Assembly: GCA_031272085.1 (NCBI GenBank)
Contig: JAISUN010000130.1
Coordinates: 1 to 51,780, forward strand
Reading direction: 5' to 3'
DNA from: Dysgonamonadaceae bacterium
GTDB taxonomy: Bacteria; Bacteroidota; Bacteroidia; Bacteroidales; Azobacteroidaceae
Length of the DNA stretch: 51,780 nt
The notes beneath the pieces are model-generated. The model searched no databases, had not been told where the DNA came from, and saw nothing but the letters and a program-made list of their open reading frames with translations. Positions 17,193-27,423 of the stretch are shown here, piece after piece; within the stretch, counting starts at the first letter, position 1; each line of letters starts with the position of its first letter. A program made the position numbers and the translations under genes.

Positions 17193-18263
17193 ATGAGCGA
17201 TAAAATAATGAAAATAGGAATTAGCCACGGCGACGTCAACGGCGTCGCATACGAATTAATCCTTAAAACGTTCTGCGAACCGCGAATGTACGAAAATTGC
17301 ATACCTGTCGTTTACGGCTCGGCCAAAGTGGTGGCCTACTACCGTAAAATGATGGATTTGCCGCAATTCAGCGTGAATAATATTAACCATCCCAACGAAG
17401 CCGCTCCAAACAAACTGAACGTAATAAGTTGCGAAACCGACGACGTAACTGTGGAACTCGGCCGTTCAACCCCGCTGATTAACAAACTTGCCGAACAGGC
17501 TTTTCAGCGTGCGGTCGCCGATTTGACGGCAGGCCACATCGACAGCCTTATTTCGGCGCCCTCGCAGGTTGACGAAAGAGCCGCTTTCGACCAGTTGGCC
17601 GGAAATGGCAAAAAGGCAATCAACATATTGATTAAAGACAATTTACGAATAGCGTTGGCAACCGATAGAATCCCGCTGTCCGAAGTTTCGGCAAGTTTGA
17701 GCCTCGAAGCCCTTGTCGCGCAAATCCGCACTCTGCAATCGGTTCTGATTCACGATTTTCTGATTGATTTTCCACGGATTGCCGTTCTGTCGCTCAATCC
17801 GGGCGCAGGCTTGCGGGAAAACAAGTTCGGCCGCGAGGAGGAAGAACTGATTATCCCCGCCGTAAAAGAGGCAAGCAAAGCAGGAATTGTCTGCTTCGGC
17901 CCCTATTCTGCCGACGATTTCTTCGGAAACGAATATTACGACCGCTTCGACGCTGTTCTTGCGATGTATCACGACCAGGGCTGCATCCCGTTCCGCGCCC
18001 TGTCCGACAACGAAGGAGTTTGCTATTCGGCCGGCCTGTCCTGCACGCGGATTGCGCCGGATACCGGCGTTTGCTACGACAAGGCGGGGAAAAACGAAAC
18101 TTCGGAAGCCCCGTTCAGAAATTCTGTTTATCTGGCAGCCGATATTTTCAAAAACCGGCTTTTCGACAGGGAAATCAACGCAAATCCCTTGAAGAAAGAA
18201 TATTACGAGAAAGGTTCCGATAACGAAAAATTAGATTTGACAAAAGACGCTGACTCTGAATGA
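17193..18263 (+). CDS. pdxA: 4-hydroxythreonine-4-phosphate dehydrogenase (PdxA)
   Basis: This 356-residue protein matches PdxA, which oxidises 4-phosphohydroxy-L-threonine for pyridoxal phosphate synthesis. It has the opening IGISHGDVNGVAYELILK, the substrate segment SAPSQVDERAAF, LSLNPGAGLRENKFGREEEE and the metal-binding YHDQGCIPFRAL. I chose the ATG at 17193 because an upstream in-frame TTG falls within the promoter box. The end overlaps the first ATG of the next gene (ATGA), which ties the following nucleotidyltransferase fusion to the same transcript. Confidence 0.93.
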   Translation: MSDKIMKIGISHGDVNGVAYELILKTFCEPRMYENCIPVVYGSAKVVAYYRKMMDLPQFSVNNINHPNEAAPNKLNVISCETDDVTVELGRSTPLINKLAEQAFQRAVADLTAGHIDSLISAPSQVDERAAFDQLAGNGKKAINILIKDNLRIALATDRIPLSEVSASLSLEALVAQIRTLQSVLIHDFLIDFPRIAVLSLNPGAGLRENKFGREEEELIIPAVKEASKAGIVCFGPYSADDFFGNEYYDRFDAVLAMYHDQGCIPFRALSDNEGVCYSAGLSCTRIAPDTGVCYDKAGKNETSEAPFRNSVYLAADIFKNRLFDREINANPLKKEYYEKGSDNEKLDLTKDADSE

Positions 18264-19804
18264 TGAATTTTGCTATAATTGCCGCCGGCGATGGCTCACG
18301 ATTGAAAAACGACGGAATTACAATTTCAAAACCATTAGTCAGAGTGAATGGTAAACCGCTGTTAAACAGGCTGATAACTCTATTTGAAAATTACTCGTCC
18401 GTTCCTGTGTCGCTCATTATCAACAACGAAATGAGCGACGTACTACGGTATGTCGAAACTTTGCAACAGCGTCGCCGGATAAATCTGATTGTGCGCTCTA
18501 CGCCGAGTTCCATGCACAGTTTTGCCGAATTGAGCCGCTTTTTGACGGGCGGAAAATTTTGCCTGACAACGGTCGATACGGTTTTTCAACCCTCTGATTT
18601 TTCGCGCTTCATCCGCGCTTTTGAAAACGATGAAGATTGCGACGGAATGTTTGCTATAACCAAATTTACCGACGACGAAAAACCTTTGTATGTTTCTGTT
18701 AATGAGCAGGATATGACCATAACCGGCTTTTACGACGAACCTCATACCGAAGCAAAATACGTTTCGGGCGGGATTTACGGCTTAACCCCAAAATCCCTGC
18801 AAACTCTGAACCGATGCCTGCAAACGGGGCAGTCGCGGATGCGCAGTTTTCAGCGTCAGTTGCTTGCCGACGGCCTTAAAATCAAGGCTTTCCCGTTTGA
18901 CAAAATAATCGACCTCGACCACGCTTCCGATATTGCCAAAGCCGAGGAACTTGTTCGTCCGCTTAACTTGCTGGCTGTCAGCCGCGAAGAGCGTTTTTCG
19001 CCCGGACATATCGAAGACGATGAGGCGATTCTAAACTCGGTAATCGAGGCCTTAAAAACGATGGATTGCGAAGTTGAACGTTGTTCCGAAAAGGAATTTT
19101 TGACCAAAAACCTTGATGCCGACCTCGTTTTCGGTATGGCCAGAGATTCCTTGACAGTGGAAAAATTGCAGGAAGTTGAGCAAAAAGGTTTACGAATTGT
19201 TAATTCCGGCTTCGGAATCGGAAACTGCATTCGTGAGAATATGGCTAAACATCTGATAGATAATGGAATACCATATCCAAAATCAATTTTTATTTCTACC
19301 GATGAGGATTTTGTTTTGCCGGACGATTTCAAAACCGATAAGTTTTGGGTGAAAAAGAGCAGTTATTTTGCTGATTGTGAGGATGTTGTCTTTGCCCACG
19401 GCAAAGAACAACTGGTTGATGTTATAAAAAAATTCCGCGAATGTGGTATTCGCTATGCTGTTGTGAATGAACATATTGAAGGCGATTTGCTGAAATTTTA
19501 CGGCGTGGCGGACAGCGGATTTTTCTACTGGTTTTATCCAACAAACAAGTGCATCAGCGGACTTTCCCTGATAAACGGGAAAGCGCTTGGCACGAAATTT
19601 GATGTGAATAATCTTGAATTGGTTTGCCGAAAGGCTGCCGAAATCTTAAATATTAAAATTTTTGGAGGCGACTGCATCGTGAGACGCGACGGAACTCTGT
19701 GCATAATTGATTTCAACGACTGGCCGAGTTTTGCCGTCTGCCGCGATGAAGCCGCTCCCGCAATCGCCAATTGCATTTATGAGAGCGCTAAAAGAAAGAG
19801 GTAA
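18260..19804 (+). CDS. Nucleotidyltransferase / ATP-grasp fusion, candidate inositol-phosphate cytidylyltransferase
   Basis: This 514-residue protein joins two enzymes. Residues 1-235 are a sugar-phosphate nucleotidyltransferase: IIAAGDGSRL (6-15), SKPLVRVNGKPLL (23-35), a metal-binding D in TTVDTVF (103-109) and a closing IDLDHASDIAKAEEL (217-231). Residues about 240-510 look like an ATP-grasp ligase: RIVNSGFGIGNCIRENMAKH (312-331), FWVKKSSY (362-369), hinge VVNEHIEGDLLKFYG (401-415) and metal ligands near GGDCIVRRDG and CIIDFNDWPSF (481-491). The second half would make an amide or ester bond using ATP. It starts within the pdxA stop; a second ATG at 18263 is equally possible. The next gene is a CDP-alcohol phosphatidyltransferase, so I infer that it makes a CDP-activated polar alcohol, perhaps CDP-inositol. 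The substrate is not proven by sequence. Confidence 0.75.
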   Translation: MMNFAIIAAGDGSRLKNDGITISKPLVRVNGKPLLNRLITLFENYSSVPVSLIINNEMSDVLRYVETLQQRRRINLIVRSTPSSMHSFAELSRFLTGGKFCLTTVDTVFQPSDFSRFIRAFENDEDCDGMFAITKFTDDEKPLYVSVNEQDMTITGFYDEPHTEAKYVSGGIYGLTPKSLQTLNRCLQTGQSRMRSFQRQLLADGLKIKAFPFDKIIDLDHASDIAKAEELVRPLNLLAVSREERFSPGHIEDDEAILNSVIEALKTMDCEVERCSEKEFLTKNLDADLVFGMARDSLTVEKLQEVEQKGLRIVNSGFGIGNCIRENMAKHLIDNGIPYPKSIFISTDEDFVLPDDFKTDKFWVKKSSYFADCEDVVFAHGKEQLVDVIKKFRECGIRYAVVNEHIEGDLLKFYGVADSGFFYWFYPTNKCISGLSLINGKALGTKFDVNNLELVCRKAAEILNIKIFGGDCIVRRDGTLCIIDFNDWPSFAVCRDEAAPAIANCIYESAKRKR

Positions 19805-20699
19805 CTATTTTAACTCGCTAAAATCTGTTGATACGGAAGGTCCGTTAGACCTCGTATTTTACCGGCCGATAGGCTATTGCTGGGCTTTGCTCGCCCAACG
19901 CGCCGGAATAAGCCCGAACCAGATTACCGTTTTTTCAATCATTATCGGTATCAGCGCCGGTATCTGTTTTTATTTCAACAGTTTATGGATTAATGTCATC
20001 GGCGTTTTGCTCCTCGTTTGGGCAAATACCTACGACAGCGCCGATGGCCAACTCGCCAGAATGACAGGCCAAAAAACCAAACTTGGCCGAATACTCGACG
20101 GAGTAGGCGGATTCATCTGGTTTATAGCCATTTACATTGCAATCGTCCTTCGCTCGTGGCCTGATTGGGGCTTTTGGGGATTGGCAATCGCTGCCGTTTC
20201 GGGATATTTTCACGGAACTCAAACAGCCATAGCCGATTACTGCCGCAACGCCTATCTGTTTTTCAAAAATGGGAAAGCCGGAAGCGAAGCCGACAATTCG
20301 CGCGAAGTCGCCGCTAAATACAGGTCGCTTTCGTGGTCGAAACAGCCTGTAATTAAACTCTTCGAGTGCTTTTACCTGAAATATACCCGCAATCAGGAAC
20401 GTTTGACGCCGAAGTACCAGCAGTTGATGAGGCAAGTGAGGCGCAATTTCCGCAATGGCGTTCCGACGGAGTTTGCCGAAGATTTTTGCTACGAAATGCA
20501 TCCATTGCTGATTTTCACAAACCTGCTGACTTTCAATTTCCGCTCGATAGTCCTCTTTATCTGCGTTTTGAGCGGTTTTCCGATGATTTATTTCTTCTTT
20601 GAATTGACGGTTATGAACGGATTGTTGCTCTATCTGCTCGTCTGCCACGAATCATTCAGCAAGAAACTCGAAAAAACTTATTTCTTTTTCAGTTCGTAG
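19779..20699 (+). CDS. CDP-alcohol phosphatidyltransferase with altered signature motif
   Basis: This 306-residue protein has about six membrane helices and a CDP-alcohol phosphotransferase core: YDSADGQLARMTGQKTKLGR followed by ILDGVGG. The consensus is DxxDGxxARx8GxxxDxxxD; here the first three aspartates are present, but the last, usually the catalytic base, is G. The lead-in PLDLVFYRPIGYCWALLA and ISPNQITVFSIIIGI are, as I recall, shared by a Bacteroidetes subfamily. I start at the ATG at 19779, overlapping the upstream fusion by 26 bases; ATG 19746 is possible. Its product and donor are unknown. It converges on, and overlaps by 22 bases, the acyltransferase gene. Confidence 0.75.
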   Translation: MRALKERGNYFNSLKSVDTEGPLDLVFYRPIGYCWALLAQRAGISPNQITVFSIIIGISAGICFYFNSLWINVIGVLLLVWANTYDSADGQLARMTGQKTKLGRILDGVGGFIWFIAIYIAIVLRSWPDWGFWGLAIAAVSGYFHGTQTAIADYCRNAYLFFKNGKAGSEADNSREVAAKYRSLSWSKQPVIKLFECFYLKYTRNQERLTPKYQQLMRQVRRNFRNGVPTEFAEDFCYEMHPLLIFTNLLTFNFRSIVLFICVLSGFPMIYFFFELTVMNGLLLYLLVCHESFSKKLEKTYFFFSS

Positions 20700-21505
20700 G
20701 TTTTGGATTTCAGGAACTCGCCAAATGCCTTAATATCAGCATATTGAGCCTGTTCTTCCACGCTTATCGGCTGTCCGAGGCGGATATCGACCGTTCTTCC
20801 GCGTTTGTTGGTTACTTCGTGCATCAGCCTGACCATCCGCAAACGCCAGTCAATCAGTCCCAGAAAGCGGTAAAACCAAGAGTTGTTTCCCGAAATGAAC
20901 ATCGGAACTACCGGAACTTTTGCCCGCTTAATCAATTTAAGCACAGGCTCTTGCCATTCGCGGTCTTCGGTCGGGCGGAACAAGTGGGGCGAAGAAACTC
21001 CTCCGGCCGGAAAAAATCCCAGCGGGTGGCCTTCTTTCAAATGCTCGATGCAGAGTTTTACCCCGCCGACGCTCGATTTCACTTCCGACATCTTGGAATT
21101 TTTATCGTAAGGATTTACGCCTATAAAATTTTCCGACATTGTGTCAATCCGGTTCAGCATCCAGTTTACCATCATTCGGTAATCCGCTCTTTTTGCGGCT
21201 ACTACGCTTATTGCAATTATGCCGTCGATATGTCCGTAAGGATGATTTGATACTGTAATAAATGCGCCTTCCGGAAACTGGTCGAGTACCCCGTAATTCT
21301 CGATATTGCGGATAATTCCCTGTCTGTCAAGCAAATCAGTAACAAATCCAAGTCCGGTTTTGTGCTTCGAACCGTCGTAAACCCCGTTTACCTTGTCGGC
21401 TCCGGTAATCTTGAAAAGCGCATTGAGAAGCATATCGCCAAAGCGTCCGCGAAAAAGCGGTGATTTGTCCCTAAATTCTTCTTTATCAATGAGTTTATCT
21501 TTCAT
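20678..21505 (-). CDS. PlsC-like lipid acyltransferase
   Basis: This 275-residue protein has the acyltransferase motifs of the 1-acylglycerol-3-phosphate acyltransferase superfamily. Block I is ITVSNHPYGHIDG (catalytic H with D six residues on, the HPxGxxD variant). Block III-like is GHPLGFFPAGGVSS, and VPVVPMFISGNN is block IV-like. The variant resembles acyltransferases once called hemolysins, which act in ornithine or glycine lipid synthesis, so the acceptor need not be a lysophosphatidate. No membrane helix is obvious, so it is probably peripheral on the inner membrane. It is the last gene of the minus-strand lipid operon and abuts the PAP2 gene. Confidence 0.85.
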   Translation of the reverse strand: MKDKLIDKEEFRDKSPLFRGRFGDMLLNALFKITGADKVNGVYDGSKHKTGLGFVTDLLDRQGIIRNIENYGVLDQFPEGAFITVSNHPYGHIDGIIAISVVAAKRADYRMMVNWMLNRIDTMSENFIGVNPYDKNSKMSEVKSSVGGVKLCIEHLKEGHPLGFFPAGGVSSPHLFRPTEDREWQEPVLKLIKRAKVPVVPMFISGNNSWFYRFLGLIDWRLRMVRLMHEVTNKRGRTVDIRLGQPISVEEQAQYADIKAFGEFLKSKTYELKKK

Positions 21506-22417
21506 TTATTTTATATAGTTCGTGTATTCTTCAAGAAATTTTCTGAACCGCCGCCTGCGCATCAGGACAAGTTCAAAAATCAAAATTCCGCTTGCGGCGC
21601 ATAAAATGCCGAGTATTACGTCGATAATGTAATGGTGCGCCGAATAAACCGCCGTAAACCAGATTCCGAACATAAAGACGGCCAAAACCGCGCTAATCCA
21701 AGCCTGACACTGGCCTTTCAGCGAATAAAACAGCGCAATAACCAAATACGATGCGTGAAGCGAAGGCACTGCTGCAAAAACATTGGCATTACGCCCGTAA
21801 ATCGAGGAAAAAATGTGGAGTCCCGTCAGTTCGTCGAAGCGGCCAAGCCCGGCCACATTGCCCGGAGCGCCGATTACAGGCTCAAATCCGTAATACATTG
21901 CGTACCAGGGCGGAGCCGCCGGATGTATGTAATAAATGGTAAATCCTATCAGATTGACAAACAGAAAAACAAGTGAAAATTGCAGGAAAAGCGATTTGTA
22001 ACCCTTGAAATACAGATAGATAGCGAAAAAAACAGGCACCGGAACCCAGCCGAGGTAAAAAATTCCGGCCAAAATGTCCATAAACCTGCTGTTGTGTATC
22101 GCAAAATATTCCGAAGGAATCAGCAAATTGCCGTCGCTGCCCATTATTCCAAACAGCGTTTTTTCGAGATTGTAAAGTCCCCCGGTATCAACCGGATTAA
22201 CTAAATAATTTGGGAAAACCCGCATCCAGTCGTAAGAAATGCCGAACACGACAAAGGGCAGCAGCCCCACTATCAACTTCCGCGACTGCTCGTTAAACAG
22301 GAAAGCCGCAAGCGCAGCCCCCGTCAGTATCACGTGTTCCGGCCGCAGTCCTATGAAAAAATATGTTAAAGCAATATAGGCCGAAGCAACAATTACCGCC
22401 GTAATATTATCCTTCAT
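21506..22417 (-). CDS. Aur1-like PAP2 enzyme, candidate inositol-phosphoryl-sphingolipid synthase
   Basis: This 303-residue membrane protein has about seven helices and the PAP2 catalytic blocks [10 protein letters not shown] and [13 protein letters not shown] (histidines with D four residues on). A preceding [13 protein letters not shown] segment is typical of Aur1/IPC-synthase-type members rather than plain phosphatases. Such enzymes move the phosphoinositol head group from phosphatidylinositol to ceramide. Bacteroidetes make sphingolipids, and the neighbouring genes provide phosphatidylinositol, so inositol-phosphoryl-ceramide synthesis is the best reading. It overlaps the upstream synthase by four bases. 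A simple lipid phosphatase role cannot be excluded. Confidence 0.8.
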
Positions 22418-23133
22418 TCAGCGCCTCCTTTGTCCTGTTCCCTCAATACTTTACGACAGTGATTCATTCTGCCTATTGCGGTAATATTGGCAAAGACGGC
22501 CACGAAAAACACCGGAATCACAAGAATAAGGATTGGTTCAAAAATCGGAATATGCAGCCAAGAGGCGTAAATCTTGCAGTCGCCCGTAAAAAAGTAGCAA
22601 ATTCCGCATCCTATCGCGCCCAGACTGATGATTACTACCCGTTCCGGCCGCTGCATAAAACCGCCTTTACATTCAATGCCCAGCCCTTCGGCTCTTGCTC
22701 TGACGTAACTTACCATCATCGAGCCTATTAGCGCAATGAATGCAAACAGCGAACTGAAAAAATAGCCCTGTAATATAAGGTAATAACTGATTCCGAACAG
22801 CACTAATAATTCGCTGTAACGGTCTAATACAGAATCGAAAAGCGCTCCGTAACGCGAACTCATATTACCGAGCCGCGCAACTTGCCCGTCGAGCATATCA
22901 AACAGCCCTGCAAACAGTATTATCGCGCCCGCCCAGCCCACGTAGGAATAGTCGCCGCGCTCGCCGTTGATAGCCGCATAAATAAACAGGGCGCAGGCCA
23001 CGGCGTTCAGCGCCAGCCCGGTTGCCGTAACAAAATTGGGAGTTATCCCAATCCGTATCATTCCCTTGACAAAGGGATTGATGATTTTATAGATTGTTTG
23101 TTGTGCAGTATCCCGTAACTTCTTAAATTTCAT
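22414..23133 (-). CDS. CDP-alcohol phosphatidyltransferase, likely phosphatidylinositol-phosphate synthase
   Basis: This 239-residue integral membrane protein carries the full family signature [20 protein letters not shown] then LFDSVLDR, with all four aspartates spaced as DxxDGxxARx8GxxxDxxxD. It should join a CDP-diacylglycerol to a polar alcohol at the inner membrane. Next to MIPS, a PgpA phosphatase and an Aur1-like gene, the substrate is most likely inositol-1-phosphate, as in the characterised Bacteroides inositol-lipid cluster. A cluster of basic residues near the N-terminus would suit a phosphorylated acceptor. It is separated from gtrA by 19 bases. Confidence 0.88.
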
Positions 23134-23152
23134 ACGATAACAATTTGTTTTA

Positions 23153-23776
23153 TCATTTTTCTATATCTGTGTTTGCTTGTGAATTTTGGCCCAAAGTTAA
23201 TGATTTTTTTTGCATTTCTTTATATTTTTTAGGCATAAAAAGTTTTCTGAAATCGTGGTTGCGGTAAACAAACAGCCTCTGCATATTGTAATTCCAGATG
23301 AATCCGACCAATAGCGAAACCAACAGTTTTGACAACACAAACAGATAATCATACAGATGTCCCAAAAACTTGGGCAGCCAGTGGATTTTTCCAAGCGTTT
23401 CGGTCAGCGCAATCGTTCCGAAATTGTTCAGAAGGATGCTGCCAATCCACGTCAGGAGGTATTTTATAAGTATAAACCGCTTCTTTATATTGCTTGCCTT
23501 GAACGTCCAACGGTAGTTCACCACGCAATTGACCGTTCCGCCTACAATGCTGCCTATAAAATTAGGAATCACGTAATGCGGCATCTTGAAAACCCGTCCG
23601 GCAAAATTGACGTATATATTCTCGCCGAACATCCTCAAAAACAGGAAAGCCAGGACGATGGACACAATATAGTCCGTCAGGCTCGAACTCAACGAGGAAG
23701 CCTGCGCCCGAAGGAACGTAAAGATTCCGCCTTTCTTGGAAAACGATTGCGTAAATTCTTTTATGCGGGAAGCCAT
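23153..23776 (-). CDS. GtrA-like membrane protein
   Basis: This 207-residue protein has four membrane helices and the GtrA-type features [20 protein letters not shown] and [23 protein letters not shown] (shown here as two pieces of the same helix pair). The RWTF turn is the GtrA hallmark. GtrA proteins are thought to help flip polyprenyl-linked sugars or other lipid-linked groups. Here, inside an inositol-lipid operon, it may move a lipid intermediate across the inner membrane; that is inference. Its start overlaps the pgpA end by 16 bases, indicating coupled translation. Confidence 0.85.
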
Positions 23777-24249
23777 CTTGTCGCTGCTAAAATTATTAAC
23801 TCCAAAACGACGAGGCTGTAAACGCCGGCCAAAACATCGTCGAACATTATTCCCCAGCCTCCTTTCAGGTTTTCCATCTTTCTTATTCCCAGAGGTTTAA
23901 AGATGTCGAACAGCCTGAACAGAATCAAAGCCGCCAGACCGTACCAAATATTTCCGTCGCAAACGAGAAGCAGCGGTATCCAAACTCCGACCATCTCATC
24001 GACAACTACCCGCGAAGGGTCTTTCCCCCACACGGTTTCCATTACGCCCGACGACCAGACGCCAAGCGCGGTAAATACAACGACCAAAGCCAGAGTAGCG
24101 AGAAACAGCGGCGTCCCGGTAATAACGAGCGACAGCAGGTACCATATTATAACGGCTAAAATCGCTCCTGCCGTTCCGGGCGCTATCGGGCAAAATCCCG
24201 AGCCGAAGCCGGTCGATATCATCACGTGAAAAAAATTAGTCTTATTCAT
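23761..24249 (-). CDS. pgpA: PgpA-type phosphatase, likely phosphatidylinositol-phosphate phosphatase
   Basis: This 162-residue membrane protein matches PgpA. It has STGFGSGFCPIAPGTAGAI near the start, the catalytic VVDEMVGVWIPLL, and DDVLAGVYSLVVLELI at the end. PgpA normally dephosphorylates phosphatidylglycerophosphate. Inside this cluster the more likely substrate is phosphatidylinositol-phosphate, giving phosphatidylinositol, as has been reported for the Bacteroides counterpart. It lies 27 bases after the lipid kinase gene and overlaps gtrA. Confidence 0.87.
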   Translation of the reverse strand: MNKTNFFHVMISTGFGSGFCPIAPGTAGAILAVIIWYLLSLVITGTPLFLATLALVVVFTALGVWSSGVMETVWGKDPSRVVVDEMVGVWIPLLLVCDGNIWYGLAALILFRLFDIFKPLGIRKMENLKGGWGIMFDDVLAGVYSLVVLELIILAATRWLPA

Positions 24250-24276
24250 TAGCCTTAATATTTAATTCGTTTTAAT

Positions 24277-25230
24277 TCAAAGTTTTACTTTTTTATGCCG
24301 TTTTTGCAGGTAATCAAACAGCGAAGGCACGTCGTAAACCTGCGGCAGCGGATTTTTCGGAACAAGCACCCGCAACCCGCTGCGGAAAACCTCTATCGTT
24401 ACCGATTTTTCCATACTGAAAGGCTCGCCGTCGAGATGGACAATGCCTGCTTTTTCGCGTTTTACGGTCAGTTTTTTCGCCTTGAAATATTTCACCTTCG
24501 GGTTTTTGTTCAGTTGCTTTGTGAACATTTGGAAAACCATCCCGACAATGTCGAGCGAAGTCATCGGCAAAAGCACGGCCACGTCAATCAGCCCGTCGTT
24601 CATATCGGCCAAAGGCGCTATATAAGCATTGTTGCCGTATTGCGAAGCATTGGCGCAAGTTACTAAAAAAGCCTTTTTCCGCACCGTTTCCGAGTCGTCG
24701 AGCGTGATTTCGTAACCTTCGGGTTTGAATTTTATGTACTCCGTAATTACGCTCCGCAGGTAAGCCCACGAACCGCGGTGTTTTTCTTCCGCAAAACGCT
24801 GGCTGATTCGTGCGTCGAATCCTACTCCGCAGGTGCAGAAGAAAATATTTTCGTTAGCCTTGCAATAATCGATAGGCGCTATGTTATGTTCCAGTATCAC
24901 GTCGATTGCTTTCCGGGAATCAAGCGGGATTGAGAGGTCGCGTGCAAGCCCGTTGCCCGAACCCATCGGGATAATTCCGAGAGCCGACTGCGAGTCCACA
25001 AGCGCCTTTGCCACTTCGTTTACAGTGCCGTCGCCGCCTACCGCAATCACATAATCCGCTCCTTTTTCAACCGCTTCGCTTGCCAACAAGTATGCGTGGC
25101 CGTGAAATTCCGTAAAGAAAAATTCCTTCTCAAACTCTTCATTCGGAACAAGTTGGTCAAACATTGCCGGTATCCCCTTCTTGGATGCTGTTCCCGATAT
25201 TGGATTTATAATTGTTACTATTTTTTTCAT
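24277..25230 (-). CDS. Diacylglycerol-kinase-family lipid kinase
   Basis: This 317-residue soluble protein belongs to the DAGK/YegS/sphingosine-kinase catalytic family. It has IINPISGTASKKG at the N-terminus, the nucleotide-binding AVGGDGTVNEVAKAL, and PMGSGNGLARDLSIPL. The C-terminal beta domain carries IVHLDGEPFSM, the usual DGE motif. It phosphorylates a lipid hydroxyl, either diacylglycerol (recycling what Aur1-like transfer releases) or a sphingoid base; sequence does not decide. It is the first gene of the minus-strand operon, with a good -7 box upstream. Recycling of diacylglycerol from the Aur1-like reaction would explain its position. Confidence 0.9.
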   Translation of the reverse strand: MKKIVTIINPISGTASKKGIPAMFDQLVPNEEFEKEFFFTEFHGHAYLLASEAVEKGADYVIAVGGDGTVNEVAKALVDSQSALGIIPMGSGNGLARDLSIPLDSRKAIDVILEHNIAPIDYCKANENIFFCTCGVGFDARISQRFAEEKHRGSWAYLRSVITEYIKFKPEGYEITLDDSETVRKKAFLVTCANASQYGNNAYIAPLADMNDGLIDVAVLLPMTSLDIVGMVFQMFTKQLNKNPKVKYFKAKKLTVKREKAGIVHLDGEPFSMEKSVTIEVFRSGLRVLVPKNPLPQVYDVPSLFDYLQKRHKKVKL

Positions 25231-25248
25231 TTATCGGTTAATGACCTG

Positions 25249-25256
25249 CAAAAGTA
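25249..25256 (-). promoter_or_regulatory. -7 box for the minus-strand lipid operon
   Basis: On the minus strand this reads TACTTTTG, a TAnnTTTG match, 18 bases before the kinase ATG. It shares the 119-base divergent gap with the HAD gene promoter. Confidence 0.55.
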
Positions 25257-25319
25257 ATAAATTTTTGTTAATAAAAATACCTTTTCCTTATATTTTATGG
25301 GCTATTTAAATAAATTAAT

Positions 25320-25327
25320 TAAATTTG
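25320..25327 (+). promoter_or_regulatory. -7 box for the HAD / MIPS unit
   Basis: TAAATTTG fits TAnnTTTG and lies 22 bases before the ATG at 25350. The divergent arrangement with the lipid operon promoter would allow joint control of inositol phosphate supply and use. Confidence 0.5.
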
Positions 25328-25349
25328 CACGTTTTTTGAACAAAAGTTT

Positions 25350-26111
25350 ATGCATGATTTTAGCGAAATCAAAGGTTTGATTTTCGATTACGGAGGTACC
25401 CTTGACGCCAATGGAAAACACTGGTTGTCAATATTTTGGGATGCGTATTCCGATGCCGGAGTTCCTGTCGGGAAAGCCGATTTTACGGCGGCATACATAG
25501 CCGTAGAGCGGCATTTGGAGGCAGAACCGCTCGTAAAATCGGATTGCAAAATGAAAGAACTGCTCGACTTGAAAACCGGTTTACAATTAAAATGGCTTTC
25601 GGAAAACGGATTTTTAGCCCCAAAATCGGAAACTTCGCTCTTTTTTTTGGCTATTTCAAATCATTGTTATAACTTTGTGGTCGATTCTTTAAAGAAGACA
25701 ATACCCGTTTTGAGGGAATTGACAGCGGTCTATCCCGCGGTACTGGCTTCCAATTTTTACGGAAATCTGAACGCCGTCCTTGACGATTTCTCCATCTCTC
25801 ATTATTTTAAAGGAGTAATCGAATCGGCAGCCATTGGAATACGTAAACCGAATCCCGAAATTTTCCGCATAGCGCTCGACAGCCTCGGCTTAAAGCCTTC
25901 GGAAACGGCAGTGATTGGGGATTCATTGAAAAACGACATTCTTCCGGCCAAATCGCTGGGGTGTACGACAATTTGGCTCAAAAACTGCCTGCTTGAAGAA
26001 GAAAATTATCCGGAATCCGCTGCCGATAGTATTATCGGCGATTTCGGCCAATTAATAAAAATATTTTTTAACAACGACTGGGTTGTTAATTCAGCCGCTA
26101 AAATTAATTAA
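25350..26111 (+). CDS. HAD-superfamily hydrolase-like protein with atypical motif I
   Basis: This 253-residue protein has HAD motifs in order: I, IFDYGGTLD (D13 nucleophile); II, VLASNF; III, IRKPNPEIF; IV, VIGDSLKNDILPA. A helical C1-type cap sits between I and II. In motif I the residue two after the nucleophile is G15, where phosphatases usually have the acid/base aspartate. The fold is intact, but simple phosphatase activity is uncertain. It is 13 bases before the MIPS start, so both are probably on one transcript; a role on inositol-1-phosphate is possible but not shown. Confidence 0.8.
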   Translation: MHDFSEIKGLIFDYGGTLDANGKHWLSIFWDAYSDAGVPVGKADFTAAYIAVERHLEAEPLVKSDCKMKELLDLKTGLQLKWLSENGFLAPKSETSLFFLAISNHCYNFVVDSLKKTIPVLRELTAVYPAVLASNFYGNLNAVLDDFSISHYFKGVIESAAIGIRKPNPEIFRIALDSLGLKPSETAVIGDSLKNDILPAKSLGCTTIWLKNCLLEEENYPESAADSIIGDFGQLIKIFFNNDWVVNSAAKIN

Positions 26112-26124
26112 GTATATAAATATT

Positions 26125-27423
26125 ATGGAAAAGGTACAAGTAAAAGACGCCAAAGGAAAAATGGGCGTTCTTGTTATCGGAGTTGGAGGCGCTGTCGCCA
26201 CAACTTTCATCGCAGGTACTATGATTGCCCGCAAGGGACTGGGAGTGCCTGTCGGCTCAATCACACAGTTGGCTACAATCCGCCTCGGAAAACGCGAAGA
26301 AAACCGCTTCCCGAAAATCAAAGACGTTGTGCCTCTGACCGACCTGAACGACATCGTTTTCGGCGGCTGGGACATCTTTGAAGACGACTGCTACGCCGCA
26401 GCCCGCCACGCCGAAGTGCTGACGGTAGAAGACCTCGACAAGGTTAAAGACGAACTGGCAGCCATCAAACCGATGAAAGCCGTTTTCGACCAGAACTTCG
26501 TCAAACGTCTTCACGGAACATGGGTTAAACAGGCTCCCACAAAATGGGACCTCGTAGAAGCGGTCCGCAAAGATATCCGCGACTTCAAAGCGGCTCACAA
26601 CCTCGACCGCCTCGTCTGCATCTGGTGCGGAAGTACCGAAGTTTTTACCCCGATGAGCGACGTCCACAAATCCGTTGCATCACTCGAAAAAGCGATGAAG
26701 GAAAACAGCCCCGAAATCGCCCCCTCGATGATTTACGCTTTTGCAGCCCTGTCGGAAGACGCGCCTTTCATCAACGGCGCCCCCAACCTGACCGTCGATA
26801 TGCCCGCTATCTGGGACTACTCGGCGCAGAAAAAACTGCCTATCTGCGGAAAAGACTTCAAAACCGGACAAACGATGATGAAAACCGTCCTCTCGCCCAT
26901 GCTCAAAACCCGCATGCTCGGCCTAAACGGATGGTTCTCGACAAACATCCTCGGAAACCGCGACGGCGAAGTCCTCGACGACCCCGGCTCATTCAAAACA
27001 AAGGAAGAATCGAAACTATCGGTTATCCACAACATCCTGCAACCCGAACTCTATCCCCAACTCTACGGAAACGTCTATCACAAAGTGCGCATAAACTACT
27101 ATCCGCCGCGTAAAGACAACAAGGAAGGCTGGGATAATATCGACATCTTCGGCTGGCTCGGCTACCCGATGCAACTGAAAGTGGATTTCCTTTGCCGCGA
27201 CTCAATTCTCGCCGCTCCCCTTTGCCTCGACCTCGTCCTCTTTACCGACCTGGCTCACAGAGCAGGATTCAGCGGAATCCAATCATGGCTTTCGTTCTAC
27301 TTCAAAAGCCCGATGCACGACTTTGAACATATCGCCGAACACGACCTCTTCATTCAATACACAAAATTGAAGAATACCCTGCGTCAAATCATCGGCGAAG
27401 AAACGATTGATTATCTCGATTAA
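26125..27423 (+). CDS. ino1: myo-Inositol-1-phosphate synthase
   Basis: This 432-residue enzyme cyclises glucose 6-phosphate to inositol 1-phosphate using NAD. The Rossmann loop GVLVIGVGGAVATTFIAG is near the start. The catalytic half has GKDFKTGQTMMKTVLSPML, GLNGWFSTNILGNRDG and KVDFLCRDSILAAPLCLDL, all family hallmarks with the active-site lysines. I use the ATG at 26125; an upstream in-frame start would overlap the HAD gene. It feeds inositol phosphate to the lipid synthases encoded on the other strand. A strong terminator follows at 27435. Confidence 0.96.
   Translation: MEKVQVKDAKGKMGVLVIGVGGAVATTFIAGTMIARKGLGVPVGSITQLATIRLGKREENRFPKIKDVVPLTDLNDIVFGGWDIFEDDCYAAARHAEVLTVEDLDKVKDELAAIKPMKAVFDQNFVKRLHGTWVKQAPTKWDLVEAVRKDIRDFKAAHNLDRLVCIWCGSTEVFTPMSDVHKSVASLEKAMKENSPEIAPSMIYAFAALSEDAPFINGAPNLTVDMPAIWDYSAQKKLPICGKDFKTGQTMMKTVLSPMLKTRMLGLNGWFSTNILGNRDGEVLDDPGSFKTKEESKLSVIHNILQPELYPQLYGNVYHKVRINYYPPRKDNKEGWDNIDIFGWLGYPMQLKVDFLCRDSILAAPLCLDLVLFTDLAHRAGFSGIQSWLSFYFKSPMHDFEHIAEHDLFIQYTKLKNTLRQIIGEETIDYLD

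What the first reader, a model, noticed from the sequence alone, without database searches (positions are those of the whole stretch)
18260..20699. Nucleotidyltransferase/ATP-grasp fusion paired with a CDP-alcohol phosphotransferase beside MIPS: a possible CDP-inositol route
Seen: a two-domain protein (nucleotidyltransferase, then ATP-grasp-like) overlapping a CDP-alcohol phosphatidyltransferase, about 5 kb from myo-inositol-phosphate synthase. Known: hyperthermophiles make di-myo-inositol phosphate with a CTP:inositol-1-phosphate cytidylyltransferase and a CDP-alcohol phosphotransferase, often fused. Inference: the same chemistry may make a CDP-activated inositol or other polyol for a lipid, and the ATP-grasp half may add an amino acid or similar group, giving a decorated head group. 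The canonical phosphatidylinositol-phosphate synthase is also present, so this would be a second branch.
Basis: partly seen in the sequence, partly recalled or inferred. Interest (0 to 1): 0.75.

Follow-up and report, generated by a model that had tools for sequence, protein, structure and literature searches.

The report
Kinase-linked CDP-inositol lipid gene module
Next to the enzymes thought to activate inositol for membrane lipids, this bacterium and many of its relatives carry an extra enzyme that may be an inositol kinase, pointing to a step not yet described in how such microbes might build inositol lipids.

Summary
Observation confirmed: 18260-19804 encodes a nucleotidyltransferase (NTase)/ATP-grasp fusion overlapping a CDP-alcohol phosphotransferase (CDPAP), 5.4 kb from MIPS. 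The CDP-inositol idea is already in print as a prediction (Heaver 2022, PMC9246714: NTP transferase, CDPAP, HAD). The window fits that cluster, with the BT-like cluster (PIPS, PI-dihydroceramide synthase, PgpA-like phosphatase) inserted in it.

New here: (1) an ATP-grasp protein recurs in the module (35 of 36 MIPS-positive, PIPS-negative genomes have it); I found it named in none of the papers searched. Profiles rank inositol-phosphate kinases first in PDB and Pfam, but ligase models lead in NCBIfam, and the fold does not discriminate. (2) Fusions: NTase-ATPgrasp, CDPAP-HAD and one triple. (3) Of 374 genomes of the order, 43 of 47 with the ATP-grasp have MIPS. (4) The CDPAP lacks the fourth signature aspartate in all 136 sequences read.

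Best guess: MIPS makes Ins3P, the ATP-grasp phosphorylates inositol (phosphate), NTase activates it, CDPAP moves it to a lipid, HAD trims phosphate. No chemistry is shown. In the window the ATP-grasp looks relaxed.

The parts
18260..18961 (+). Nucleotidyltransferase half of the fusion (residues 1-234), most like inositol-1-P CTP transferase by structure
   Evidence: PF00483 2.4e-9; Foldseek first match 4jd0, but by sequence profile 4jd0 is only fourth, behind a glucose-1-P thymidylyltransferase and two 6-deoxy-mannoheptose pathway chains; R14, K24, D106 near-invariant in 129 sequences, matching in order and roughly in spacing the residues R16/K26/D112 quoted for IMPCT/CpgD in PMC12275187; no residue-by-residue alignment made
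18962..19804 (+). ATP-grasp half of the fusion (residues 235-514), candidate inositol(-phosphate) kinase. In domain numbering D237, D250, N252 kept; N15, D134, R161, E202 changed
   Evidence: Profile to PDB: ITPK 1z2n 8e-8 first; ATP-grasp fold; conservation and departures. That D237/D250/N252 are the metal site is recalled
19779..20699 (+). CDP-alcohol phosphotransferase lacking the fourth signature Asp (open frame begins at 19707)
   Evidence: PF01066 2.1e-11; AF2299, CEPT1, CHPT1 as PDB relatives; motif; start by comparison with relatives
20678..21505 (-). Lyso-lipid acyltransferase-like (GlsA/OlsF type)
   Evidence: PF19576 4.5e-18; NF053697 110 bits, under its cut-off of 260
21506..22417 (-). 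Phosphoinositol dihydroceramide synthase (BT_1522-like)
   Evidence: NF052609 473.7 bits, just under its cut-off of 480
22414..23133 (-). Phosphatidylinositol-phosphate synthase (BT_1523-like), canonical four-Asp motif
   Evidence: NF052561 391 bits, cut-off 350; motif
23153..23776 (-). GtrA/DPMS-type membrane protein
   Evidence: PF04138 1.4e-8
23761..24249 (-). PgpA-like phosphatase (taken as the BT_1525 PIP phosphatase counterpart)
   Evidence: PF04608 3.3e-41; the equation with BT_1525 is inference
24277..25230 (-). YegS/diacylglycerol-kinase-like lipid kinase
   Evidence: TIGR00147 153.6 bits over cut-off; PF00781
25350..26111 (+). HAD hydrolase of the alternative cluster, motif DYGGT
   Evidence: PF00702 6.5e-17; DYGGT, DYGAT or DFGGT in 114 of 117 aligned
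26083..27423 (+). myo-Inositol-phosphate synthase (MIPS)
   Evidence: PF07994 4.6e-107; PDB 7nwr 7.3e-208

Best explanation
The fusion and the CDPAP are the core of the Bacteroidota 'alternative' inositol-lipid module (NTase, ATP-grasp, CDPAP, HAD, MIPS), here interrupted by a BT-like module. Proposed working: MIPS makes Ins3P. The ATP-grasp half is an ITPK-like kinase that adds a phosphate to inositol or Ins3P. The NTase joins that phosphate to CTP. The CDPAP transfers the phosphoinositol unit to a membrane alcohol, directly to dihydroceramide and/or diacylglycerol. The HAD removes the extra phosphate. If the kinase worked at the 1-position, Ins3P would become Ins(1,3)P2, CDP-Ins3P, lipid-PI3P and finally the 1-linked PI lipid that the BT route also makes, which would explain why the module holds both a kinase and a phosphatase. 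Shown: gene content, recurrent order, fusions, co-occurrence, fold, conserved residues. Inferred: every substrate and the order of steps. In this genome the module may be partly redundant with the BT-like route.
For: Around the ATP-grasp gene: of 80 named loci, NTase 77, CDPAP 77, HAD 72, MIPS 48; of 46 order-level loci 44, 42, 39, 36; of 11 phylum-level loci 11, 11, 11, 9 (contig ends not corrected). From the other side: all 22 genomes of 58 with a strong match to the fusion (E 1e-50 or better) match both halves, and 35 of 36 MIPS+ PIPS- genomes have the ATP-grasp. ATP-grasp with MIPS 43 of 47, MIPS in 18 of the other 327 (Fisher 3e-37; own genome included, phylogeny not corrected). Profiles: ITPK first in PDB at 7.5e-4 and, with a wider alignment, 8e-8; best single-member Pfam E Ins134_P3_kin 2.1e-5, RimK 0.0044. 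Plant ITPK1 phosphorylates the MIPS product Ins3P (PMC7618535, passages). Fusions: NTase-ATPgrasp in 18 loci besides the window (15 distinct contigs), CDPAP-HAD in 7 (6 distinct), one triple of 825 aa; Heaver reports a CDPAP-HAD fusion in P. veroralis. First structural match of the fusion is inositol-1-P CTP transferase.
Against: For a typical member NCBIfam gives ligase models first: MptN 1.4e-8, RimK family 2e-7, both far under cut-off; whether NCBIfam holds an ITPK model was not checked. No single stretch of the ITPK 1z2n match is significant alone (0.13, 0.14) and PsnB, a ligase, follows at 7e-7; the second hit was the ligase ArgX (0.056). Pfam: more members hit RimK (9 of 47) than ITPK (5 of 47). 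Fold search ranks PsnB, Ddl and RimK beside ITPK. AtITPK1 takes Ins3P slowly and first to Ins(3,4)P2, not Ins(1,3)P2; AtITPK4 does not use Ins1P or Ins3P (PMC7614388). G161 keeps the ATP-grasp but no NTase, CDPAP or HAD was found. G357 has no HAD and no PgpA-like match. The CDPAP lacks D4, whose D-to-N change nearly abolishes PIPS activity (PMC4634129). By sequence the NTase profile is nearest a glucose-1-P thymidylyltransferase, and CpgD also has 4jd0 as top structural hit yet uses phosphoglycerate (PMC12275187). Four of 47 genomes have no MIPS. No whole-genome search was made with NTase or CDPAP over the order, so how often these occur without the ATP-grasp was not measured there.
Confidence: 0.4

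Rival explanations
1. Heaver model without a kinase step: NTase makes CDP-inositol directly from inositol phosphate, CDPAP makes PI-DAG, HAD converts it to PI-dihydroceramide; the ATP-grasp protein is an accessory.
For: In print as a prediction (PMC9246714); structural similarity of the NTase to inositol-1-P CTP transferase. G304, G402 and G161, which have the PI-dihydroceramide synthase, lack HAD.
Against: 35 of 36 MIPS+ PIPS- genomes have the ATP-grasp and it is fused to the NTase in 15 distinct contigs besides the window, rather constant for an accessory. The HAD is of a soluble hydrolase family; I recall no transferase precedent. HAD is also present beside the module in the window and in G004, G006, G098, G189 and G263, which have PIPS too, and its loss also coincides with a PgpA-like phosphatase, so HAD loss does not decide.
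Confidence: 0.2
2. The ATP-grasp half is an amino-acid ligase that decorates inositol or the lipid head group.
For: NCBIfam ligase models first (MptN 1.4e-8, RimK family 2e-7); fold and second-tier matches to RimK, ArgX and PsnB. In unnamed phylum relatives a tandem ATP-grasp pair lies beside an aminotransferase and a Gfo/Idh/MocA oxidoreductase, which could supply an amino-inositol. G161 keeps the ATP-grasp without the NTase.
Against: First matches in PDB and lowest Pfam E are inositol-phosphate kinases. An invariant Lys (K180 of the reference sequence) stands where PsnB has Arg in the printed alignment. An aminotransferase was recognised near the module in one Bacteroidales locus whose neighbours were scanned with Pfam (L147); most neighbours in the other Bacteroidales loci were searched only with window-derived queries, so such enzymes were not excluded there.
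Confidence: 0.25
3. HAD first removes phosphate from Ins3P to give free inositol; the ATP-grasp is an inositol kinase giving Ins1P, then CDP-inositol and lipid.
For: Uses every gene once; HAD and MIPS overlap in the window (25350-26111 and 26083-27423).
Against: CDPAP-HAD fusions in 6 distinct contigs suggest HAD acts next to the CDPAP rather than before the kinase.
Confidence: 0.12
4. In this genome the module is decaying or diverged after the BT-like cluster arrived (compatible with any of the above).
For: Window and G004 ATP-grasp depart at 14 and 15 of 79 conserved columns, the other 16 genus sequences at 0-6; 10 PIPS+ against 49 PIPS- sequences p 0.018. The CDPAP +5 residue is F in the window and Y in G004.
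Against: All frames are open; NTase, CDPAP and HAD show no significant excess (p 0.18, 0.24, 0.33), and PIPS- sequences outside the genus reach 29 departures. G006, with the insertion elsewhere, has 3. Window and G004 share the arrangement and are probably one event. No phylogenetic correction.
Confidence: 0.35

Closest known systems
Alternative inositol-lipid cluster of Bacteroides vulgatus and Prevotella (Heaver 2022, BVU_RS13095/13105/13115)
   Same: NTP transferase, CDP-alcohol phosphatidyltransferase, HAD and MIPS together; predicted CDP-inositol route.
   Different: The ATP-grasp is not named in the text ('grasp' 0 hits; figures and supplements not seen; the gap at tag RS13100 would fit it, inference). 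Here NTase and ATP-grasp are fused and the BT-like cluster lies inside. B. vulgatus sequences were not compared.
Archaeal and Thermotoga IPCT/DIPPS (di-myo-inositol phosphate synthesis)
   Same: Cytidylyltransferase plus CDP-alcohol phosphotransferase; 4jd0 is the first structural match.
   Different: No ATP-grasp there (recalled); NF041135 scores 30.1 bits against a cut-off of 580.
ITPK, inositol 1,3,4-trisphosphate 5/6-kinase family
   Same: ATP-grasp fold; first profile match in PDB and lowest Pfam E.
   Different: Very distant: the one PF05770 score seen is 16.9 bits against a cut-off of 23.
RimK/MptN-type ATP-grasp ligases
   Same: Fold; best NCBIfam matches.
   Different: Far under the curated cut-offs (34.2 against 350, 30.6 against 143.4).
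Eukaryotic CEPT1/CHPT1 (Kennedy pathway)
   Same: CDP-head-group plus lipid-alcohol logic; second to fourth PDB matches of the CDPAP profile.
   Different: The Bacteroidota proteins lack the fourth Asp.
Caulobacter CpgD
   Same: Cytidylyltransferase of the same superfamily serving a sphingolipid head group (PMC12275187, passages).
   Different: Substrate there is phosphoglycerate; 'ATP-grasp' has 0 hits in that text.

Membership tests
Heaver alternative inositol-lipid cluster | NTP transferase, CDP-alcohol phosphatidyltransferase and HAD near MIPS | tested here: met
   all four in 18260-27423, separated by the BT-like genes
Heaver alternative inositol-lipid cluster | Sequence homology to the B. 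vulgatus proteins | not tested
   No B. vulgatus sequence was retrieved
Heaver alternative inositol-lipid cluster | Produces PI lipids | not testable with these tools
   Needs lipid analysis
CDP-alcohol phosphotransferase (PF01066) | Profile over the curated cut-off | tested here: met
   44.9 bits, cut-off 22
CDP-alcohol phosphotransferase (PF01066) | Signature D1xxD2G1xxAR...G2xxxD3xxxD4 | tested here: not met
   D4 is G or S in 124 of 124 by pattern and G in the one read by eye, G in 11 of 11 phylum-level; D in 6 of 6 PIPS and 5 of 5 paralogues
Inositol-1-P cytidylyltransferase | Fold, and conserved R, K, D | tested here: met
   4jd0 first; R14, K24, D106, matched by order and spacing only; shared with CpgD, so not specific
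Inositol-1-P cytidylyltransferase | Closest by sequence profile among solved structures | tested here: not met
   4jd0 fourth of 28 (7.7e-7), first is 3hl3 glucose-1-P thymidylyltransferase (6.1e-9)
Inositol-1-P cytidylyltransferase | NF041135 equivalog cut-off | tested here: not met
   30.1 bits against 580; that model is of bifunctional enzymes named for Thermococcales
ITPK | PF05770 over its curated cut-off (23 bits) | tested here: inconclusive
   One relative with a score shown: 16.9 bits; best E 2.1e-5 among 47, bits not shown; the window's fusion did not list PF05770 at E 0.1
ITPK | Kinase activity on inositol phosphates | not testable with these tools
   Assay needed
RimK-type ligase | TIGR00768 cut-off (143.4 bits) | tested here: not met
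   21.4 bits in the window, 30.6 in L069

The most novel reading that the evidence does not exclude
Bacteroidota use an ITPK-like ATP-grasp kinase, a family known from eukaryotes and reported in archaea, as a committed step of membrane-lipid synthesis: a kinase-cytidylyltransferase pair turns the MIPS product Ins3P into a 1-linked CDP-inositol carrying a temporary 3-phosphate, a CDP-alcohol phosphotransferase without the fourth aspartate moves it straight onto (dihydro)ceramide, and a HAD strips the temporary phosphate.
Probability: 0.18. Interest if true: 0.78.

Novelty: new variant of a known kind. Interest (0 to 1): 0.55.

Why it matters
The alternative inositol-lipid route is frequent in host-associated Bacteroidota (PMC9246714, passages) and unproven. 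A recurrent kinase-like or ligase-like partner and a CDP-alcohol phosphotransferase without a signature residue change the predicted chemistry and give direct assays. If the kinase role holds, inositol-phosphate kinases would have a bacterial, lipid-making branch.

Tried and rejected
Considered and set aside: that the pair belongs to the upstream pdxA operon and only happens to lie near MIPS. PdxA is often beside it (46 of 80 loci), but in the 11 phylum-level loci no PdxA was found while NTase, CDPAP and HAD (11 of 11) and MIPS (9 of 11) were. Considered: decay of the whole module in the window; only the ATP-grasp showed significant excess divergence. A first version of that test (ATP-grasp p 0.0013, CDPAP 0.005, NTase 0.019, HAD 0.13) was biased because the PIPS-negative sequences helped define the columns; the repeat with columns taken from the 80 named loci gave 0.018, 0.24, 0.18, 0.33. 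Fold comparison as a way to tell kinase from ligase failed. PMC10765375 gave no passages for my terms. G165 was dropped from the neighbourhood fetch, so 46 of 47 order-level loci were read. Rfam at gathering thresholds and a tRNA scan of the window found nothing.
Full report
Anatomy. The window is contig C54 of G000 (2.63 Mb, 82% complete). Contigs of same-genus genomes have the lengths of MAG contigs labelled Dysgonamonadaceae, Candidatus Symbiothrix and Bacteroidales bacterium, so it belongs to Bacteroidales. On the + strand a run of BamG, LptC-like, GldE-like, SurA-like, RlmN and PdxA-like genes leads into an NTase/ATP-grasp fusion (18260-19804, 4-nt overlap with pdxA) and a CDPAP (probable start 19779, end 20699). 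Then, on the - strand, come a GlsA-like acyltransferase, PI-dihydroceramide synthase, PIPS, GtrA, a PgpA-like phosphatase and a YegS-type kinase; then, again on +, HAD and MIPS.

What the surroundings show. In PIPS-negative genus members whose contigs span it, the order is NTase, ATP-grasp, CDPAP, HAD, MIPS, acyltransferase, mostly after PdxA. In the window and G004 the BT-like block lies between CDPAP and HAD; in G006 it lies between ATP-grasp and CDPAP. In three genomes of another family (G304, G402, G161) BT-like genes sit directly after the ATP-grasp gene. In the other four order-level genomes with both (G098, G137, G189, G263) PIPS and ATP-grasp are on different contigs. The paper that described the two routes (PMC9246714; [quoted passage not shown]

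Distribution. With the ATP-grasp alignment A3, 47 of 374 order genomes match (367 of the 374 are at least 90% complete and at most 5% contaminated). With window MIPS 61 match, with NF052561 PIPS 25. Cross-counting: 43 of 47 ATP-grasp genomes have MIPS; of 61 MIPS genomes 35 have the ATP-grasp only, 17 PIPS only, 8 both, 1 neither (G261). The own genome is counted. These tests ignore phylogeny, but the ATP-grasp matches lie in 34 of 199 genera. In a phylum-wide draw 12 of 296 genomes match; 11 loci from 10 of them were read: all have NTase, CDPAP and HAD, 9 have MIPS.

The recurrent gene. These loci were found by the ATP-grasp, so they show what accompanies it, not how often NTase and CDPAP occur without it. 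From the other side: in 58 relatives all 22 genomes with a strong match to the fusion match both halves, in one case (G010) on two contigs and in one (G001) from a contig end; three more (G002, G042, G045) have only weak NTase matches, E 4e-7 to 6e-6. And 35 of 36 MIPS+ PIPS- genomes have the ATP-grasp. Fusions of stop-to-stop frames: NTase-ATPgrasp in 18 loci besides the window, CDPAP-HAD in 7 and one triple NTase-ATPgrasp-CDPAP of 825 aa in G197. Three pairs of loci are one contig fetched twice, judged by equal contig lengths (L038/L078, L044/L055, L033/L071), leaving 15 and 6 distinct contigs; many are of one genus. Such fusions suggest successive steps.

What the ATP-grasp does. No Pfam family matched at E 0.01 in any of 45 members. 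The profile of A3 against 177,635 PDB sequences gave 7 matches: ITPK 1z2n (7.5e-4), the ligase 3vpb (0.056), four ITPK1 entries (0.73-0.78) and PsnB 7drm (0.79). With 47 more diverse members ITPK 1z2n led (8e-8, though no single stretch is significant alone), then PsnB (7e-7), AtITPK4 (4e-6), ITPK1 (1.5e-4) and RimK-type (5e-4). Single-member Pfam scans: RimK in 9 of 47 (best 0.0044), Ins134_P3_kin in 5 of 47 (best 2.1e-5). Against this, NCBIfam matches a typical member (L069) to MptN 1.4e-8 and RimK family 2e-7, both ligases, far under cut-off; I did not check whether NCBIfam holds an ITPK model. The AlphaFold model (pLDDT 89.3) is an ATP-grasp fold, but Foldseek ranks ligases and ITPKs together. 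I favour a kinase, narrowly. Arabidopsis ITPK1 phosphorylates Ins3P, the MIPS product (PMC7618535, abstract and passages), but slowly and first at position 4; AtITPK4 does not use Ins1P or Ins3P (PMC7614388, passages).

The NTase. The whole fusion's first Foldseek match is inositol-1-P CTP transferase 4jd0. By sequence profile 4jd0 is fourth of 28 PDB matches, the first being a glucose-1-P thymidylyltransferase. CpgD, which uses phosphoglycerate, also had 4jd0 as its top structural hit (PMC12275187, passages). The substrate is therefore open.

The CDPAP. The signature D1xxD2G1xxAR...G2xxxD3xxxD4 is called absolutely conserved, and changing D4 to Asn nearly abolishes PIPS activity (PMC4634129, passages). 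In this family the D4 position is Gly or Ser in 124 of 124 sequences that fit the pattern and Gly in the one that does not, and Gly in 11 of 11 phylum-level ones. The next residue is Asp in 102 of 124 but otherwise N, V, I, Q, F, Y, A or E; it is Phe in the window and Tyr in G004; among the 11 it is Asp in 1 and Asn in 10. PIPS (6 of 6) and a CDPAP paralogue next door in some genomes (5 of 5) keep D4. Either a one-residue shift restores an equivalent residue in most members, or another residue serves as base; in eukaryotic CHPT1 a Glu/His pair is proposed (PMC10182977, passages), in CEPT1 His155 or His197 (PMC10156783, passages). The closest solved structures after AF2299 are CEPT1 and CHPT1, which use a CDP-head group and diacylglycerol.

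The HAD. Its motif is DYGGT, DYGAT or DFGGT in 114 of 117 aligned sequences, without the second Asp of the usual DxD (usual motif recalled). G304, G402 and G161 lack it and have the PgpA-like phosphatase and PI-dihydroceramide synthase; G357 lacks all three; the window, G004, G006, G098, G189 and G263 have PIPS and HAD together. The eight alternative-only genomes examined (G058, G242, G091, G181, G275, G283, G352, G025) show no PgpA-like and no PI-dihydroceramide synthase match at E 1e-6. This fits HAD as phosphatase or as the ceramide-directing enzyme; it does not decide.

Why kinase and phosphatase together. MIPS makes Ins3P. Cytidylylated directly it would give a 3-linked lipid, the mirror of ordinary PI. 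Phosphorylation at position 1, activation there, transfer, then loss of the 3-phosphate would give the 1-linked lipid. This is my inference from known stereochemistry (recalled); no call tests it, and the plant ITPK1 precedent starts at position 4.

State of the module here. Using columns conserved in the named set (74 ATP-grasp sequences, not wholly independent of the genus), the window's ATP-grasp departs at 14 of 79 and that of G004 at 15, the other 16 genus sequences at 0-6. PIPS-positive against PIPS-negative genomes: p 0.018 for ATP-grasp (10 against 49), 0.18 NTase, 0.24 CDPAP, 0.33 HAD; PIPS-negative ATP-grasps outside the genus reach 29 (no phylogenetic correction). All frames are open and the fusion models well. 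The pair may be relaxed or reshaped where the BT-like route is present.

Comparison with print. The CDP-inositol idea and the NTP transferase/CDPAP/HAD cluster are published as a prediction (PMC9246714) and repeated in a review (PMC10191378, passages); another review mentions a variant pathway in Prevotella (PMC12482443, passages). Searches whose listings showed no ATP-grasp role in bacterial inositol lipids: (open-licence PMC library only; figures and supplements not seen). That ITPKs are reported in archaea is from PMC8024741 (abstract and passages).

Noticed in passing
L186, L188, L190, L192 (unnamed phylum relatives): Two tandem ATP-grasp genes in a larger module. In L186 Pfam names MlaE, ABC ATPase and MlaD genes after the NTase, a class III aminotransferase before the CDPAP, and a Gfo/Idh/MocA oxidoreductase and LPG_synthase_TM before HAD and MIPS; L189, with one ATP-grasp, also has the Mla genes and LPG_synthase_TM. 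Possibly an amino-inositol lipid with its own transport.
   Followed up: partly
L147:3978-7486; also L144, L145, L148, L052: A second CDPAP with the canonical four-Asp motif lies upstream of the NTase; in L147 it is accompanied by a class I/II aminotransferase, another NTP transferase and a LysE-type transporter.
   Followed up: partly
L142:10832-11839 and similar: An LPG_synthase_TM-type membrane protein sits between CDPAP and HAD in 16 of 46 order-level and 10 of 11 phylum-level loci, in none of 80 named loci and not in the window (one query sequence, E 1e-8).
   Followed up: partly
L140 (G161): ATP-grasp gene kept beside GtrA, PIPS and PI-dihydroceramide synthase in a 99% complete genome where no NTase, CDPAP or HAD of the module was found.
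   Followed up: partly
window 20678-21505: GlsA-like acyltransferase beside the BT-like block; related acyltransferases follow MIPS in alternative-only genus members, hinting at acylation of an inositol lipid.
   Followed up: no
L153:8272-10746 (G197): Single 825-aa frame joining NTase, ATP-grasp and CDPAP in a genome without a MIPS match.
   Followed up: partly
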